From Peptoniphilus raoultii (GTDB lineage: Bacteria; Bacillota; Clostridia; Tissierellales; Peptoniphilaceae): a stretch of 64,000 nucleotides of DNA. The DNA lies in the NCBI RefSeq assembly GCF_900099555.1, contig NZ_FMWM01000002.1, forward strand, positions 878,018 through 942,017, read 5' to 3'. Position numbers and translations under genes: made by a program. Each line of letters opens with the position of its first letter. Within the stretch, counting starts at the first letter, position 1. This document shows positions 50,333 through 57,836 of this stretch, one piece after another. The notes below the pieces were generated by a model, which was not told the origin of the DNA, did not search any database, and was given only the letters and a program-made list of their open reading frames with translations.

Positions 50333-51277
50333 ATGGAAAAATTATCATTAAATTCTTATAATGAACAGAATTCTTTTTTAAAAAATAACAATATTACAGT
50401 AAGTCCTTTTATTAAATGGGCTGGTGGTAAAAGAGCATTAATTCCTGCAATTTCTAGATTTTATCCTTTTGAATCTTTAAAAATTGATACTTATATAGAG
50501 CCTTTTGTTGGAAGTGGGGCTATATTATTTGATATTCTAAATAAATTTACCTTAAAAAATATTATAATTAATGATATTAATGCACAACTTATAAGCACTT
50601 ATAAATTTATTCAATTAAATCCCAGTATTTTAATTAAAAAATTGAGAGAATTAAAAAAATATTTCTTTGATTTAAGCCAAACAAAAAGATCGGACTTTTA
50701 TTATGAAATAAGGAATATTTATAATAAAAATATTGAGAATAATGATTTTAAAACAGCAGATATGGCTGCAAGTTTTATTTTTTTAAATAAAACTTGCTAT
50801 AATGGGCTGTATAGAGTTAATAAAAAAGGACTTTTTAATGTTCCTTATGGCTCTTATAAAAATCCCTCAATATTTGATGAAGACAATATATATAATATAT
50901 CTAAGTTGCTTAAGAATGTAGTTATTTTAAATGGAGTCTACAATAACACATTAGAGTTCATTGATGAAAATACTTTTGTTTATCTAGATCCGCCTTACAG
51001 ACCCCTAAGTTCTTCATCAAGTTTTACATCTTATGCTAAAGGTGATTTTAATGATTATGATCAAATAGAATTAAGTAATTTTATAAAGATGATAGATAAT
51101 AGAAGGGCAAAATTTATCTTAAGCAATTCCGATCCTAAAAATACTGACATAAATGATAATTTTTTTGATGATCTATATACAGATTTTAAGATTTATAGAA
51201 TTTCAGCAAAAAGGTCTATTAATAGTGATTCAAGTAAAAGGGGTTTTGTAAACGAGTTATTAATTACAAATATTTAA
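50333..51277 (+). CDS. DNA adenine methyltransferase, Dam/DpnM type
   Basis: Adenine-N6 methyltransferase of 314 residues, D12 class (alpha order). Motif I 'FIKWAGGKRALIPAI', then 'YIEPFVGSGAILFD', then D-P-P-Y in 'TFVYLDPPYRPLS'. The next gene is a DpnII-type nuclease, so GATC is the expected target. GTAGAGGTG precedes the ATG. It protects host DNA from the linked nuclease. Full length. Confidence 0.92.
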   Translation: MEKLSLNSYNEQNSFLKNNNITVSPFIKWAGGKRALIPAISRFYPFESLKIDTYIEPFVGSGAILFDILNKFTLKNIIINDINAQLISTYKFIQLNPSILIKKLRELKKYFFDLSQTKRSDFYYEIRNIYNKNIENNDFKTADMAASFIFLNKTCYNGLYRVNKKGLFNVPYGSYKNPSIFDEDNIYNISKLLKNVVILNGVYNNTLEFIDENTFVYLDPPYRPLSSSSSFTSYAKGDFNDYDQIELSNFIKMIDNRRAKFILSNSDPKNTDINDNFFDDLYTDFKIYRISAKRSINSDSSKRGFVNELLITNI

Positions 51278-51288
51278 GGAGGATATAT

Positions 51289-52149
51289 ATGAATAGGAAT
51301 TTTAAAGAGTGGTTTTCAACTTTTTCACCAAGCATTTCAGATTATAGCTATTATACTGACTTTGAAAAGATATTGAAAAATGTAGATTCGATTAAAGTTG
51401 AATTGAATATTTTAAATTCTTTGATAGGTTCAAATAATATTAGTCATGATTTTATTGATTTAGTGAAAAAATATCCGGATACTCTTAAATGCATACCAAT
51501 TTTATTAGCTGTTAGGTCTAATGAAATATTTATTAAAGATAAAGATAAGGAATTGATTTATAATTTTAATAAACCGAATATGAATTTTTCTGATTATGGA
51601 ATTTTTATGGAAAAGACGGGTCTTTTTTCTTTAATGGAAAAATCAAAAATTAAAGATTTAGTGGATTATGTTACAGGAGTAGAAACTGGACTAGATTCGA
51701 ATTCTAGGAAAAATAGAGGCGGTCATATTATGGAGAATCTTGTAGAATCCCACATAAGTAAATATTGTCAAGAACATGGTTTTGAATATTTTAAAGAGAT
51801 GAGGAGTCGAGATGTTGAACTTAAATGGAATATTGACTTGGGAGATATTTCTAATAATGATAAAGTAATTAAAAGGTTTGATTTTGTAATTAAAACAAAT
51901 ACTTGTGCCTATTTAATTGAAGCAAATTTCTATAGTTCGCAAGGCTCTAAGCTTAATGAGACTGCAAGAAGCTATAAGAATATCGCAATTGAAATGAAAA
52001 ATGTAGAAGGGGCTGAATTTATATGGTTTACTGATGGTTATGGTTGGAAAAGTGCGAGAAATAATCTTGAAGAAACTTTTGATAATATGAAACATATATA
52101 TAATATCAAAGATTTAAATAGTGGAATTTTAGACGAGATAATTGTATAG
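51289..52149 (+). CDS. DpnII/MboI-type restriction endonuclease
   Basis: Type II nuclease predicted to cut unmethylated GATC; 286 residues. 'FKEWFSTFSPSISDYSYYTDFEKI', 'TGVETGLDSNSRKNRGGHIMENLVE' and 'EMRSRDVELKW' closely fit DpnII-family proteins. The PD-(D/E)xK-like core is probably 'RFDFVIK...LIEANF'. It stands 11 nt after the methyltransferase, with AAGGAGG before the ATG, and 7 nt before a second methyltransferase. Confidence 0.9.
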   Translation: MNRNFKEWFSTFSPSISDYSYYTDFEKILKNVDSIKVELNILNSLIGSNNISHDFIDLVKKYPDTLKCIPILLAVRSNEIFIKDKDKELIYNFNKPNMNFSDYGIFMEKTGLFSLMEKSKIKDLVDYVTGVETGLDSNSRKNRGGHIMENLVESHISKYCQEHGFEYFKEMRSRDVELKWNIDLGDISNNDKVIKRFDFVIKTNTCAYLIEANFYSSQGSKLNETARSYKNIAIEMKNVEGAEFIWFTDGYGWKSARNNLEETFDNMKHIYNIKDLNSGILDEIIV

Positions 52150-52156
52150 GTGACTT

Positions 52157-52900
52157 ATGAATAAAAAAATAAAATCTTTTGAACCTGAAAATTTTGAGCT
52201 TGAGTTAAATACAGTTTGGGGGTTTCCTGATAGGGGTAGTTGGGCCACACATGATGCTAAGTATAGAGGGAATTGGTCGCCGTATATTCCTCGAAATTTG
52301 ATATTAAGATATACTAAAGAGCAAGACCTAATTCTTGACCAGTTTATTGGTGGAGGGACAACACTTGTTGAAGCAAAGTTACTTAATAGAAATATTATAG
52401 GGATTGATATAAATCAAAATTCTTTAGATATTTGTAAAGAAAAAATTGATTTTGAATATAAAAGCAATTCAAATATTTCTTTAAAAAATGCAGATGCTAG
52501 GGATTTATCTTTTTTAAAAAATGAAAGTATCGATTTTATTTGTACTCATCCCCCTTATGCTAATATAATAAGATATAGTGAAGATATAGAAGGTGATTTA
52601 TCACATCTTGAAATAAAAGATTTTTTGATAGAAATGAAAAAAGTTTCAGAAGAATCTTATAGGGTTTTAAAAAAGGGTAAGTTCTGCACAATTCTTATTG
52701 GTGATACTAGGAAAAATGGAAATGTAATTCCTCTCGGGTTTGAGACCATGAAGGTCTTTCAAGATGCAGGATTTAAACTAAAGGAAATAATTTTAAAAGA
52801 ACAGCATAATTGTCGAGCAACTGGATTTTGGAAAACAAGAAGTATAAAATATAATTTTCTACTTCTTGCTCATGAGTATTTGTTCGTTTTTAGAAAATAA
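52157..52900 (+). CDS. Second DNA methyltransferase of the GATC cassette, not DpnA-like
   Basis: A 247-residue SAM-dependent methyltransferase. Motif I is 'LDQFIGGGTTLVEA' and motif IV 'CTHPPYANIIRYS', in the order I then IV with no large recognition domain between. DpnA, the usual second enzyme in DpnII cassettes, is of beta class with D-P-P-Y before motif I, so this is a different family; H-P-P-Y with such an order is also seen in N4-cytosine and RNA-type methylases. It ends the cassette. Target base unknown. Confidence 0.8.
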   Translation: MNKKIKSFEPENFELELNTVWGFPDRGSWATHDAKYRGNWSPYIPRNLILRYTKEQDLILDQFIGGGTTLVEAKLLNRNIIGIDINQNSLDICKEKIDFEYKSNSNISLKNADARDLSFLKNESIDFICTHPPYANIIRYSEDIEGDLSHLEIKDFLIEMKKVSEESYRVLKKGKFCTILIGDTRKNGNVIPLGFETMKVFQDAGFKLKEIILKEQHNCRATGFWKTRSIKYNFLLLAHEYLFVFRK

Positions 52901-52917
52901 TTTAAATAATAAGCTTG

Positions 52918-52951
52918 AACTTTGGAGATTTTATCTTCAAAGTTTTTTTAT
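52918..52951 (+). terminator. Terminator of the GATC R-M cassette
   Basis: AACTTTGGAGAT (52918-52929) pairs with ATCTTCAAAGTT (52933-52944, one G-T), then TTTTTT. Confidence 0.88.
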
Positions 52952-53022: not shown

Positions 53023-53035
53023 AATGATTTGCATT
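53023..53035 (+). promoter_or_regulatory. Operator 1 of the zinc operon
   Basis: AATGATTTGCATT ends inside the -35 box. Its exact reverse complement is at 53073-53085. Ends AATG/CATT make each copy an imperfect palindrome. Confidence 0.75.
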
Positions 53036-53062
53036 GACTTTTATTTTTTATGGATTTATAAT
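53034..53062 (+). promoter_or_regulatory. Promoter of the zinc operon
   Basis: TTGACT (53034-53039), 17-bp spacer, TATAAT (53057-53062). It lies between two identical inverted operators. Confidence 0.85.
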
Positions 53063-53072
53063 ACTGAAAGTA

Positions 53073-53085
53073 AATGCAAATCATT
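53073..53085 (+). promoter_or_regulatory. Operator 2 of the zinc operon
   Basis: AATGCAAATCATT, exact inverse of operator 1, just downstream of the expected transcription start. Centres are 50 bp apart. Confidence 0.75.
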
Positions 53086-53115: not shown

Positions 53116-54060
53116 ATGAAAAGAAAAATTTTTTTACTAGGGCTTTTATTTTTAATTTTTTTAAGTGCTTGTACAAATAAAAATGGAGGTCAATTAAATA
53201 ATGCTTCTAATAAGGAATTGGCATTAAGTCAAAATTCGGAGAAAAAAATTATTTACACCACTTTTTTTCCTGTCTATGATCTGACAAAAAGAATTGTGGG
53301 GGACAAAATGGAAATTAAAAGTATTATTAAGGGCAGCCAGGAGCCCCACGATTTTGAATTACAAACTAAGGATATGGTTGAAATTTCTAAGGGCGATTTA
53401 ATTATTTATAATGGAGCTAATATGGAGGCCTTTATTCCAAGTCTCATGGATGCGGCAGGTGATGATTCAAAATTTTTAGATTTATCACAAAACTTAAGGA
53501 TTTTGGCAAAAAAAGATGAAATTTCTGAAGATACAAAAAAAGTAAATCCTCACACTTGGCTTAGCATAAAAAACACCATGGTGGAATTAAAGGAGATTTA
53601 TGAAAAAGTTTTAGAAATAGATCCAGAAAATCAAAGTTTTTATAAGGAAAATCTCCAAAAGGCTCTTGCAGATTTTCAAGTTCTTGACCAAAAGTTTGAA
53701 GATGAACTTTCAAAAGTTCATGGGGAAAAATATTTTGTTGTTTCTCACGCAGCCTTTAATTATTTGGCAAAGGATTATGGCTTAAAACAAGTTGCCGTAA
53801 CTGGAATTTCTCCAGAGGAAGAGCCATCAGCTAAGCAGCTAAAAACAATTGCAGATTTTGTAAAAAGTCATGAGATTGGAACAATTTTCTTTGAGGGAAA
53901 GGCAACACCTAAAGTTGCAGAAACTCTTGCCAAGGAAACAAATACAAAGACGGCAACTCTTTATACAATGGAAAATTTAACAGAGGAAGAAATGGAAAGG
54001 GGATATTTAAAATTAATGGAAGAAAATTTAGAGGCACTGGTGAAATCTTTTAATGAATAA
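53116..54060 (+). CDS. adcA: Zinc ABC transporter substrate-binding lipoprotein
   Basis: Cluster A-I metal-binding lipoprotein, 314 residues. A lipoprotein signal ends at L-S-A-C19. Metal ligands are expected from His in 'EPHDFE', 'NPHTW', 'VVSHAAF' and a C-terminal acidic residue. The His-rich loop found in many ZnuA/AdcA is absent, as is a ZinT domain; the His-rich lipoprotein at the operon end may take this role. The ATG at 53116 is chosen for its GGAGG site; an earlier in-frame ATG lies within operator 2. Manganese cannot be excluded, but the context favours zinc. Confidence 0.9.
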   Translation: MKRKIFLLGLLFLIFLSACTNKNGGQLNNASNKELALSQNSEKKIIYTTFFPVYDLTKRIVGDKMEIKSIIKGSQEPHDFELQTKDMVEISKGDLIIYNGANMEAFIPSLMDAAGDDSKFLDLSQNLRILAKKDEISEDTKKVNPHTWLSIKNTMVELKEIYEKVLEIDPENQSFYKENLQKALADFQVLDQKFEDELSKVHGEKYFVVSHAAFNYLAKDYGLKQVAVTGISPEEEPSAKQLKTIADFVKSHEIGTIFFEGKATPKVAETLAKETNTKTATLYTMENLTEEEMERGYLKLMEENLEALVKSFNE

Positions 54061-54712
54061 GATTTTAGAAGTCAAAAATTTGTCCTTTGCTTATGATCAT
54101 AAGTTAATTTTAGATGATATAAATTTTTCCCTAAAGAAGGGAGAATTTAATGGCTTAATTGGAAAAAATGGTGTTGGAAAATCAACTCTATTAAATTTAA
54201 TTTTAGGAAATTTAAAAAATTATAGGGGGCAAATTTTTTTATTTGCTGATGATATAAAAATTACTAACCACCACAAAGACCTTGCCTATATTTCTCAAAA
54301 TAAAAGTTCATCCTACAAAAATTTTCCAACAAGTGTGGAAGAAGCTTTAAAAATTCATCTTTCCTATTTAAAAAAGAAAGATTCAATAGAAAAATATCTT
54401 GAAATGGTAGGGCTTCTAAAGGAAAGGAAAAAGGCTTTGAAAGAACTTTCTGGAGGTCAGCTTCAAAGGCTTTCCCTTGCTCTTGCTCTAATTAAGGATG
54501 CAAAATTGTTTTTATTAGATGAGCCAACGGCAAGCACCGATGATGAGTTTTCAAGAGAATTTTTTTCTCTTTTAAAAAATTTTACAAGAGATGGCAAGAC
54601 CATTTTACTTGTCAGCCATGATTTGCAAAAGGCTCGGGACTTTGCCCATCAGCTTTTGAAACTTGAAGGGGGAAAGTTAAAAATTTTCAGGAGGGAGGAA
54701 GAAGATGCTTGA
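54053..54712 (+). CDS. adcC: Zinc ABC transporter ATP-binding protein
   Basis: ATPase of the metal importer, 219 residues. Walker A 'GKNGVGKST', signature 'LSGGQLQRLSLALAL', Walker B 'LFLLDEPTAS' and the switch His in 'LLVSHD' are present. Overlaps the binding-protein gene by 8 nt and the permease gene by 8 nt. Confidence 0.93.
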   Translation: MNKILEVKNLSFAYDHKLILDDINFSLKKGEFNGLIGKNGVGKSTLLNLILGNLKNYRGQIFLFADDIKITNHHKDLAYISQNKSSSYKNFPTSVEEALKIHLSYLKKKDSIEKYLEMVGLLKERKKALKELSGGQLQRLSLALALIKDAKLFLLDEPTASTDDEFSREFFSLLKNFTRDGKTILLVSHDLQKARDFAHQLLKLEGGKLKIFRREEEDA

Positions 54713-55509: not shown

Positions 55510-57795
55510 ATGAATAAGCAGTTTTTAAATAGTAAAATTTTGCCCCTAGCCCTACTTTTAAGTCTTAGTCTTAATTTAGGTGCTTGCCAAAGGGAGTTTG
55601 GTAAAAGTCCAGATACAAAAATCGAAAATCTGTCAGAAGAAAATCAAAAATATATCGATGATGACACAACAGAAGTTCTTTTAGATGACAGCGATATAAA
55701 TAAGGATGATATTGTAAAAGTAATTGAACATGGGGACCATTGGCACGTTTTTACAAAGGATGGCAAGGAACATATAACTTACACAGATCCAAATTCTATG
55801 GGTGGAAAAATGGAAATGGTAAGTGTAGTTTCTCTTGACCAGCTTAAAAATTTAGATGTTTCAGAAATTAAAGTTCATGGCAATCACTGGCATGTCTTCA
55901 CAAGTGATGGAGAAGAATATTTGACCTACGAAAATCCTAAAGATATGTTTCCAAATATAAAAATTGGAAAATATGAGGGTCATGACAAAGTCCTTGCCAA
56001 TAAAAAAACTAGTAAAAAATTTTTGCCTGGACCTACAAAAGAAAATAATTCTGATGAAGTAGTAAAAATTTTAAAGCATGGAGATCATTACCATGTTTAT
56101 ACAGCATCTGGAGAAGAATTTATAACTTATGAAAATCCAAGCAAGGCCTATCCAAATATAAAAATAGGAACTTATACTGGTAGCCATGGAAGTAATGGAA
56201 GCAAAAATAATTTAAAACTTACTAAGGTAAATAATGAAAATAATTTAAATAAGGGAATTGAATTTATAAGTGCTGTTGGATTAAATGATTTAAAAAATCT
56301 AAATGTAGAAAAGATTTTAAAACATGAAGATCATTATCATGTTTACACAAAAGACGGAAAAGAACTTATAACCTATGAAGACCCAAGCAGTTTATTTCCA
56401 AATATAAAAATAGGGACATATATTGGAAGTCATGGTTCTAATAATAGCAAGTCTTTAAATGGTTTTAATAATTTAGCCTTTAATAATAGCCCTCTTAATC
56501 AAAATAATTTATTAAGTAATTTAGGACAAAATTTTAATCAAAGGTCAAATAATCCCAATGAAGTAGTTAAAATATTAAAGCATGGCGACCATTATCACGT
56601 TTATACAGCAAGTGGAAAAGAATTTATAACCTATGAAGACCCAAGCTCAATGTACCCAAATGCACAGCGTGGAATTTATCAAGGAAGCCATGGACCCTTA
56701 AATGGATTAAATAATAATAACAACTTTAACAATAATTGGAACAATAATAATTGGAATGAAAATTTAAGACCTTCCTACCCCAATTATCCTGATTTTGGAA
56801 ATAATAATGAAAATTCATTTTTTATAAGGACAATTAATAAAAGTGAATTGCAAAATATAAGCATAAAGAAAATAAAAAAACATGGGGATCATTTTCATAT
56901 TTACGATTATAATAACAAAGAATATATAACTTACGAATATCTTGGAGAAATTGGAGGAGTTTATAATTCTGTAGTTATAGAAGAGTATCAAGGCAGTCAT
57001 GGGAAAAATAATAATGAAAACACTGACAATAAGTGGCCAAAGGGCATTACAAAAATAATAGACCATGGAGATCATTGGCATTTATATATTGGGGATAGGG
57101 AAGTTGGAATTGTTAGAGAAAATCCAAAAAAACATTATCCAAATGCTGAGTATATTGTAGAAAAGGGCGAAGATCATTCTAATATTAATGTAGATAAGGA
57201 AGAAATTTTTCCAATTGATGATGTAAGTCCAAGGCTTGTAAGTAGTGTTATACCATATTTAGGCAATTTAAGAGCTATGACAAATTATGGGAATTTAAAT
57301 ACTACCCTACCAGTTTTTGGATCAGACGGGCAAACATCAAATATATTTTACTGGCTACATGGAAACCACTACCATGCAATTTCTGTTAAACAAATAATTA
57401 AAAATCAAAAGGCAGGGGACTATGGCGATAATTCTGCCAGAGATGTTGTAGCAACTTTAAAATATTTAATAGATAATAAAAAAACAGGAAATCAAGAAAA
57501 TGAAGAAGAGGAAGACTATAAATTTTCAGTATCAATGGAAGAGGTAATAACTTATCTTAAAAATTATTATGGCCCAGATGCAAAGGTTGAAAATGATTTT
57601 GGATTACGTATTTTAGTTACTAATAATAAAAATGACATGATATCATTTAATCAAGCAGATTTTGACAAAAAGGGTGGTTTAATTATTTATAAAAAAGGAG
57701 AACTACCAAAATTTCCTGAAACAGTAGAAGAAGCTGATGGAAAAGAAATAAATAATAATTATAAGTTAGATGAAAATATAGAATTAGAAAATTAA
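55510..57795 (+). CDS. Multi-repeat histidine-triad lipoprotein (Pht-like)
   Basis: Surface lipoprotein of 761 residues with lipobox ending at C26. Eight H-x-x-H-x-H triads start at residues 74, 123, 190, 272, 358, 458, 519 and 617. Most sit in a repeat of about 45-85 residues: V/I-K-H-G-D-H-[WYF]-H-V-[FY]-T-x-x-G-x-E-x-I-T-Y-E-[ND]-P, then Y-P-N-x-x-x-G-x-Y-x-G-S-H-G. An Asn-rich linker spans about 397-434. The triads match the streptococcal Pht (Strep_his_triad) zinc-binding motif. Its place right after adcB argues that it captures zinc and hands it to AdcA. The C-terminal 140 residues are not repeated. Confidence 0.9.
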   Translation: MNKQFLNSKILPLALLLSLSLNLGACQREFGKSPDTKIENLSEENQKYIDDDTTEVLLDDSDINKDDIVKVIEHGDHWHVFTKDGKEHITYTDPNSMGGKMEMVSVVSLDQLKNLDVSEIKVHGNHWHVFTSDGEEYLTYENPKDMFPNIKIGKYEGHDKVLANKKTSKKFLPGPTKENNSDEVVKILKHGDHYHVYTASGEEFITYENPSKAYPNIKIGTYTGSHGSNGSKNNLKLTKVNNENNLNKGIEFISAVGLNDLKNLNVEKILKHEDHYHVYTKDGKELITYEDPSSLFPNIKIGTYIGSHGSNNSKSLNGFNNLAFNNSPLNQNNLLSNLGQNFNQRSNNPNEVVKILKHGDHYHVYTASGKEFITYEDPSSMYPNAQRGIYQGSHGPLNGLNNNNNFNNNWNNNNWNENLRPSYPNYPDFGNNNENSFFIRTINKSELQNISIKKIKKHGDHFHIYDYNNKEYITYEYLGEIGGVYNSVVIEEYQGSHGKNNNENTDNKWPKGITKIIDHGDHWHLYIGDREVGIVRENPKKHYPNAEYIVEKGEDHSNINVDKEEIFPIDDVSPRLVSSVIPYLGNLRAMTNYGNLNTTLPVFGSDGQTSNIFYWLHGNHYHAISVKQIIKNQKAGDYGDNSARDVVATLKYLIDNKKTGNQENEEEEDYKFSVSMEEVITYLKNYYGPDAKVENDFGLRILVTNNKNDMISFNQADFDKKGGLIIYKKGELPKFPETVEEADGKEINNNYKLDENIELEN

Positions 57796-57810: not shown

Positions 57811-57836
57811 GAGCAGGGAAAAAGCCTTGCTCTTTT
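57811..57836 (+). terminator. Terminator of the zinc operon
   Basis: GAGCAGGG and CCTTGCTC pair (one G-T), followed by TTTT. Confidence 0.75.

What the first reader, a model, noticed from the sequence alone, without database searches (positions are those of the whole stretch)
55510..57795. Lipoprotein with eight HxxHxH triads at the end of a zinc importer operon
Streptococcal Pht proteins have up to six triads. Here eight are counted, at residues 74, 123, 190, 272, 358, 458, 519 and 617, in long repeats with a Y-x-G-S-H-G tail that adds another His. The partner AdcA lacks its own His-rich loop, so zinc capture seems to have moved to a separate surface protein.
Basis: partly seen in the sequence, partly recalled or inferred. 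Interest (0 to 1): 0.62.

Follow-up and report, generated by a model that had tools for sequence, protein, structure and literature searches.

The report
Eight-site zinc-scavenger lipoprotein beside importer
An anaerobic coccus (Peptoniphilus) carries, inside one of its zinc-import operons, a surface lipoprotein with eight predicted zinc-gripping sites; it probably works like the pneumococcal Pht proteins but belongs to a divergent branch that published family signatures miss.

Summary
Window 55510-57795 (+) encodes a 761-aa lipoprotein with exactly eight HxxHxH triads at the stated residues; composition shuffles give at most two. It is the last gene of adcA-adcC-adcB-pht, behind one strong promoter flanked by two Fur-family-type boxes and followed by a terminator-like hairpin. 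The partner AdcA lacks a His-rich loop and keeps the His-His-His-Glu zinc ligands. In 130 family genomes, all 25 with an orthologue of this AdcA carry the triad gene on the same strand just downstream; only one triad gene stands alone. Triad number is 5-8, changing by tandem duplication. Most likely it is a Pht-like zinc scavenger handing zinc to AdcA. 'Moved' from the loop is too strong: the same genome has a second zinc importer with an 18-His loop, and four relatives have both loop and triads. By published signatures (PF04270 cut-off, TIGR01363, the PROSITE motif) it is not a Pht family member, although a chimeric relative joins this module type to a genuine streptococcal Pht half. Each long repeat folds as a small alpha/beta unit with an invariant Glu at +13 and no conserved upstream acid. 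New variant of a known kind.

The parts
52917..52945 (+). Terminator-like hairpin that ends the preceding DpnII-type operon, so the adc operon is its own unit
53023..53035 (+). Fur-family-type box, copy 1 (AATGATTTGCATT), overlapping the -35
   Evidence: the only two exact copies in the 1.62-Mb genome are both here; 7-1-7 half-sites conserved in six loci
53034..53062 (+). sigma-70-type promoter TTGACT-17-TATAAT (11 of 12 matches)
53073..53085 (-). Fur-family-type box, copy 2 (inverted AATGATTTGCATT), just downstream of the -10
53116..54060 (+). adcA-like zinc substrate-binding lipoprotein without His-rich loop; ligands H78, H146, H211, E260
   Evidence: PF01297 262 bits; ligand columns and loop; nearest solved structures YcdH, AdcA, AdcAII
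54053..54712 (+). adcC-like ABC ATPase
   Evidence: PF00005
54705..55499 (+). adcB-like ABC permease
   Evidence: PF00950
55510..57795 (+). Pht-like lipoprotein with eight HxxHxH triads, 761 aa
55729..55746 (+). triad 1 HGDHWH, residues 74-79 (short module)
55876..55893 (+). triad 2 HGNHWH, residues 123-128 (long module)
56077..56094 (+). triad 3 HGDHYH, residues 190-195 (short module)
56323..56340 (+). triad 4 HEDHYH, residues 272-277 (long module; modelled alone, pLDDT 87)
56581..56598 (+). triad 5 HGDHYH, residues 358-363 (short module)
56881..56898 (+). triad 6 HGDHFH, residues 458-463 (long module)
57064..57081 (+). triad 7 HGDHWH, residues 519-524 (variant module, no Glu at +13)
57358..57375 (+). 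triad 8 HGNHYH, residues 617-622 (distinct C-terminal module with following helices)
57811..57832 (+). terminator-like hairpin after the gene (-13.1 kcal/mol, z -2.7, then UUUU)

Best explanation
It is a surface-anchored zinc scavenger that works like streptococcal Pht proteins. Shown from sequence: a lipobox lipoprotein; eight triad modules strung on Asn-rich linkers; co-linear in one predicted transcription unit with a zinc-type SBP and its ABC transporter; a promoter bracketed by two Fur-family-type operators. Inferred: each triad holds one Zn(II) through its three His plus a fourth ligand (the best candidate in the long modules is the invariant Glu at +13, with the tail His at +36 as an alternative); zinc is passed to the high-affinity HHHE site of the loop-less AdcA and imported by AdcCB; a Fur-family repressor silences the operon when metal is plentiful. 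Repeat number is tuned by duplication of modules.
For: Operon of four tightly spaced genes conserved in Peptoniphilus and Anaerococcus. In 130 family genomes, 25 of 25 with the AdcA orthologue have the triad gene on the same strand just downstream, either after adcCB or directly after the SBP with a 28-41 bp gap. The direct arrangement is the same as streptococcal adcAII/lmb-pht (PMC3842936, PMC3603884). Zinc ligand set H-H-H-E aligned with YcdH, AdcA and AdcAII. The three His are 100% (the search pattern requires them) and the Asp of HxDHxH 98% conserved over 132 modules; in 26 long modules Glu+13 is invariant and the tail His over 90%. AF2 puts each triad on a beta hairpin, as in PhtA and PhtD. 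Pneumococcal PhtD binds about one Zn per triad and transfers it to AdcAII (PMC3842936). Two boxes at all six promoters tested, 0-4 of 2000 shuffles as good.
Against: No biochemical data exist for this clade. The boxes resemble Fur as well as Zur sites, and the two Fur-family regulators of the genome could not be told apart as Zur or Fur. Box conservation weakens outside Peptoniphilus and Anaerococcus. Relatives with both a His-rich loop and triads show that the triad protein is not simply a loop substitute. One genome (G016) has the gene without its SBP.
Confidence: 0.72

Rival explanations
1. It is a zinc buffer or sink that protects the cell from metal excess rather than feeding the importer.
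For: Many sites per molecule; proposed as an alternative for Pht proteins (PMC3842936).
Against: It sits in the importer operon behind repressor-type boxes, which predicts expression under scarcity.
Confidence: 0.1
2. It is mainly a host-interaction protein (adhesin or complement-factor binder) in which zinc is structural.
For: Pht proteins bind host factors and are surface antigens (PMC3842936); long variable linkers and a surface lipoprotein anchor.
Against: Genetic linkage to the zinc SBP in 25 of 26 cases; the metal-ligand residues are the most conserved part.
Confidence: 0.1
3. The system serves another metal (iron, nickel, cobalt or manganese) rather than zinc.
For: The boxes are close to Fur consensus; triads can bind other divalent metals.
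Against: HHHE ligands and nearest relatives of AdcA are zinc SBPs; the genome has a separate TroABCD-like system with two permeases for which manganese is likelier.
Confidence: 0.08

Closest known systems
Streptococcal polyhistidine triad proteins (PhtD with AdcAII; HTP I subfamily)
   Same: Several HxxHxH triads, mostly HGDHYH; secreted surface protein; operon with a zinc SBP that lacks the His-rich loop; each triad on a beta sheet.
   Different: Eight instead of up to six triads; PF04270 just below cut-off; no TIGR01363 or PROSITE match; no conserved acid about 20 residues upstream, instead Glu at +13; operon contains the whole ABC transporter; Fur-type boxes instead of AdcR control; clear lipobox.
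HTP proteins outside streptococci (Shao et al. 2013, PMC3603884: Gemella, Granulicatella, Catonella, Slackia and others)
   Same: Non-streptococcal triad proteins; the one in Slackia exigua lies downstream of adcA.
   Different: Those ten genes were accepted after Pfam analysis; Peptoniphilus and Anaerococcus are not among them. The present clade mostly falls below those signatures.
L046/G098 chimeric protein (family relative, in an adcA-adcC-adcB-pht operon)
   Same: N-terminal half is the window type (about 41% identity); same operon position.
   Different: C-terminal half is true streptococcal Pht (PhtD 9p1v E 1.3e-12, PF04270 46.4 bits, TIGR01363 45.1 bits).
FtsH periplasmic domain (fold only)
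   Same: The long repeat has the same order of strands and helices; top-ranked by Foldseek and VIA-align.
   Different: Below significance (E 1.8e-3; Z 5-6), no sequence family match; the triad sits in the beta hairpin. May be only a common arrangement.
AztD / ZinT / C. diphtheriae ZnuF-ZnuG (auxiliary zinc proteins beside zinc ABC importers)
   Same: Accessory extracellular zinc protein encoded with a zinc importer.
   Different: Different proteins according to published descriptions; not compared by sequence here.

Membership tests
Pht/HTP polyhistidine triad family | Two or more HxxHxH triads | tested here: met
   Eight; shuffles at most 2
Pht/HTP polyhistidine triad family | PF04270 at gathering score (27 bits) | tested here: not met
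   25.5 bits, E 1.3e-5; but orthologue L011 31.1 and relative L046 46.4 bits pass
Pht/HTP polyhistidine triad family | TIGR01363 at its cut-off | tested here: not met
   no match at E <= 1; only the relative L046 matches, through its C-terminal half
Pht/HTP polyhistidine triad family | PROSITE motif of Bersch et al. 2013, at least two hits | tested here: not met
   0 hits in the window protein and in every relative
Pht/HTP polyhistidine triad family | Fourth zinc ligand, an acid about 20-21 residues upstream of the triad | tested here: inconclusive
   No offset between -26 and -13 is acidic in more than 28% of modules; Glu+13 is invariant in long modules; ligand not determined
Pht/HTP polyhistidine triad family | Operon with a zinc SBP of AdcAII type (no loop) | tested here: met
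   but the SBP is not an AdcAII orthologue in an 11-row tree
Pht/HTP polyhistidine triad family | Triad on a three-stranded beta sheet | tested here: met
   AF2: strands 68-74, 77-82, 87-90 and equivalents; order here is H-strand, HxH-strand, then third strand
Pht/HTP polyhistidine triad family | Zinc binding and transfer to the SBP | not testable with these tools
   needs protein
Zinc ABC importer AdcABC/ZnuABC | PF01297 SBP with HHHE ligands, plus ATPase and ABC-3 permease | tested here: met
FtsH periplasmic domain fold (repeat unit) | Significant structural match | tested here: inconclusive
   E 1.8e-3 with probability 1.00, Z 5-6

The most novel reading that the evidence does not exclude
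The repeats are not Pht modules at all but an independent invention: a small FtsH-periplasmic-like alpha/beta unit that acquired the HGDHYH hairpin and a different fourth ligand (Glu+13 or the tail His). It was then amplified to 5-8 copies beside a zinc SBP, so that partnerships of a triad protein with a zinc SBP arose twice, with L046 a later fusion of the two kinds.
Probability: 0.25. Interest if true: 0.6.

Novelty: new variant of a known kind. Interest (0 to 1): 0.42.

Why it matters
It extends the triad-protein plus zinc-importer partnership, studied almost only in streptococci as virulence and vaccine biology, to anaerobic cocci of the Peptoniphilaceae, in a form that the standard signatures miss. 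Natural variation (5-8 triads, SBP with or without loop, SBP-pht or adcACB-pht) gives a ready-made test of what the triads and the SBP loop each contribute. If the fourth ligand differs, it is also a second solution to building a triad zinc site.

Tried and rejected
Triads as chance: rejected by shuffling. Triad protein as a strict substitute for the SBP His loop: rejected as a rule by four relatives with both and by the second znu operon of the same genome. SBP as an AdcAII orthologue: a small tree groups AdcAII with YcdH and AdcA instead (11 rows, AdcAII on a long branch, so weak). PDB profile searches: full-length profile A1 finds nothing; the unit profile A2 hits pneumococcal PhtD/PhtA entries only weakly and only over the HGDHYH core; profile A4 of the last module hits designed repeat proteins by summing many tiny matches (artefact) and PhtD at E 1.2. 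PhtA and PhtD are not among the listed fold matches of either model, which excludes nothing. The box consensus with up to 3 mismatches is too permissive genome-wide (342 places against 52 for the control), so no regulon was derived. No relative on plasmids. 398 genomes of the phylum: only one weak match outside the family. Streptococcal Pht genes could not be reached directly; comparison went through Pfam, NCBIfam, PDB and papers.

Full report
OBSERVATION. The ORF at 55510-57795 (+) encodes 761 aa. HxxHxH occurs at residues 74, 123, 190, 272, 358, 458, 519 and 617, exactly as reported. Shuffling the protein 20,000 times gives a mean of 0.05 such motifs and never more than two. The N-terminus is a signal peptide with lipobox LGAC (Cys26; read from the sequence). 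No other protein of this kind is found in the 1.62-Mb genome.

OPERON. adcA (ATG at 53116), adcC, adcB and the triad gene overlap or lie within 11 bp of each other. The best promoter match of the region (TTGACT-17-TATAAT, 53034-53062) precedes adcA. A terminator-like hairpin lies upstream (52917-52945) and another follows the triad gene (57811-57832, -13.1 kcal/mol, z -2.7). The promoter is bracketed by two inverted copies of AATGATTTGCATT, at 53023-53035 and 53073-53085; these are the only exact copies in the genome. Each contains part of a 7-1-7 palindrome TGCAAATnATTTGCA, the layout used by Fur-family repressors (established knowledge). All five related operons from Peptoniphilus and Anaerococcus also have two such boxes, and 0-4 of 2000 shuffles do as well. 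In other relatives the boxes are weaker or closer to a Fur box. The genome has two Fur-family regulators, one of them divergent from a second znu operon; NCBIfam does not decide between Zur and Fur. Regulation by zinc is therefore inferred.

THE PARTNER SBP. AdcA belongs to PF01297 (262 bits); its nearest solved relatives are YcdH, AdcA and AdcAII. It keeps the H-H-H-E ligand set and has no His-rich loop. The same genome has a second zinc-type operon whose SBP has an 18-His loop and a TroABCD-like system with two permeases. Losing the loop at this locus has thus not removed it from the cell.

DISTRIBUTION. A profile of seven relatives finds the protein strongly in 26 of 130 family genomes (two further hits are weak and triad-free). 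An orthologue of the window AdcA (E <= 1e-70) is found in 25 genomes, all among those 26. In all 25 the triad gene is on the same strand and contig just downstream: in 19 after a gap of about 1.45-1.57 kb, which holds adcCB in every locus inspected, and in 6 (one genus) directly after the SBP, 28-41 bp away. The second layout is that of streptococcal adcAII/lmb-pht (PMC3842936, PMC3603884). Only G016 has the gene alone. Fisher p is 7e-26, but the genomes are related, so this is not a true probability. Outside the family almost nothing is found (1 weak match in 398 phylum genomes; none on plasmids).

LOOP VERSUS TRIADS. SBPs of the adcACB-pht layout all lack the loop. In the SBP-pht genus, four of six have 5-10 His in the loop segment and still an adjacent triad protein. 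A strict trade-off is therefore not supported.

REPEATS. Intact relatives have 5-8 triads; the three Peptoniphilus proteins have eight. G153 also has eight through a clear tandem duplication of a two-module block, where its sisters have six or fewer. Modules 3, 4 and 5 of the window protein are 70-78% identical to each other, the others far less. Over 132 modules picked by the triad pattern, the Asp of HxDHxH is 98% and Pro+20 is 97% conserved. Over 26 long modules Glu+13 and two Tyr are invariant, and the tail His is above 90%. No acidic residue is conserved at the upstream position that gives PhtA and PhtD their fourth ligand (ligand facts from PMC3842936).

STRUCTURE. The full model is poor overall (pLDDT 57) but shows the same three-stranded unit at modules 1-6 and a strand pair at triads 7 and 8. 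Module 4 alone, with 26 sequences, folds with confidence (pLDDT 87, core 95-96): strand, helix, three-stranded meander with the triad at the first hairpin, last strand. The best fold matches of both models are FtsH periplasmic domains, below significance (E 1.8e-3 at best; Z 5-6).

RELATION TO PHT. By sequence the window protein scores 25.5 bits against the PF04270 cut-off of 27, has no TIGR01363 match and no hit to the PROSITE motif of Bersch et al.. An Anaerococcus orthologue passes PF04270 (31.1 bits). A relative in the same operon position (L046) has an N-terminal half of the window type and a C-terminal half of streptococcal PhtD type (9p1v E 1.3e-12; PF04270 46.4 bits; TIGR01363 45.1 bits). 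This is compatible with common descent or with fusion. Shao et al. 2013 searched non-streptococcal genomes and listed ten htp genes, none from Peptoniphilus or Anaerococcus (PMC3603884). Paper searches combining these genera with histidine triad returned nothing in the held library. I therefore say that it works like a Pht protein, is probably a distant relative, and is not a member by current signatures.

MECHANISM. Shown: gene order, motif number, ligand conservation and promoter anatomy. Inferred: zinc binding at each triad, transfer to AdcA, import by AdcCB, and repression by a metal-loaded Fur-family regulator. The direct precedent is NMR-shown zinc transfer from a PhtD fragment to AdcAII (PMC3842936).

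Noticed in passing
window 50333-52900: A complete DpnII-type restriction-modification set (MethyltransfD12, DpnII endonuclease 349 bits, N6_N4 methylase) lies between rpsD and the adc operon; it was not found in the flanks held for the five related operons.
   Followed up: partly
L037 2559-5597 (own genome C1:1020058-1023096): Second znu operon: SBP with an 18-His loop, ATPase and permease, with a divergent Fur-family regulator; no triad gene.
   Followed up: yes
L018 / G016:C3:216041-217858: Stand-alone triad gene whose protein has long (HD)n stretches inserted between modules, resembling the His loops of zinc SBPs.
   Followed up: partly
L067 (G153:C50:69854-72043): Near-identical tandem duplication of a two-triad block, raising the triad count to 8.
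   Followed up: yes
L013 3315-5346; L066: Apparently frame-broken triad genes in an Anaerococcus MAG and in G155 (several stops); could be assembly error or pseudogenes.
   Followed up: no
G153:C4:33456-34352: A second open frame of 1157 aa, elsewhere in that genome, that matches the profile in triad-module regions; possibly another architecture.
   Followed up: no
L011 7995-10271, residues 718-757: DUF5633 (PF18656, 58 bits) at the C-terminus of one Anaerococcus triad protein.
   Followed up: no
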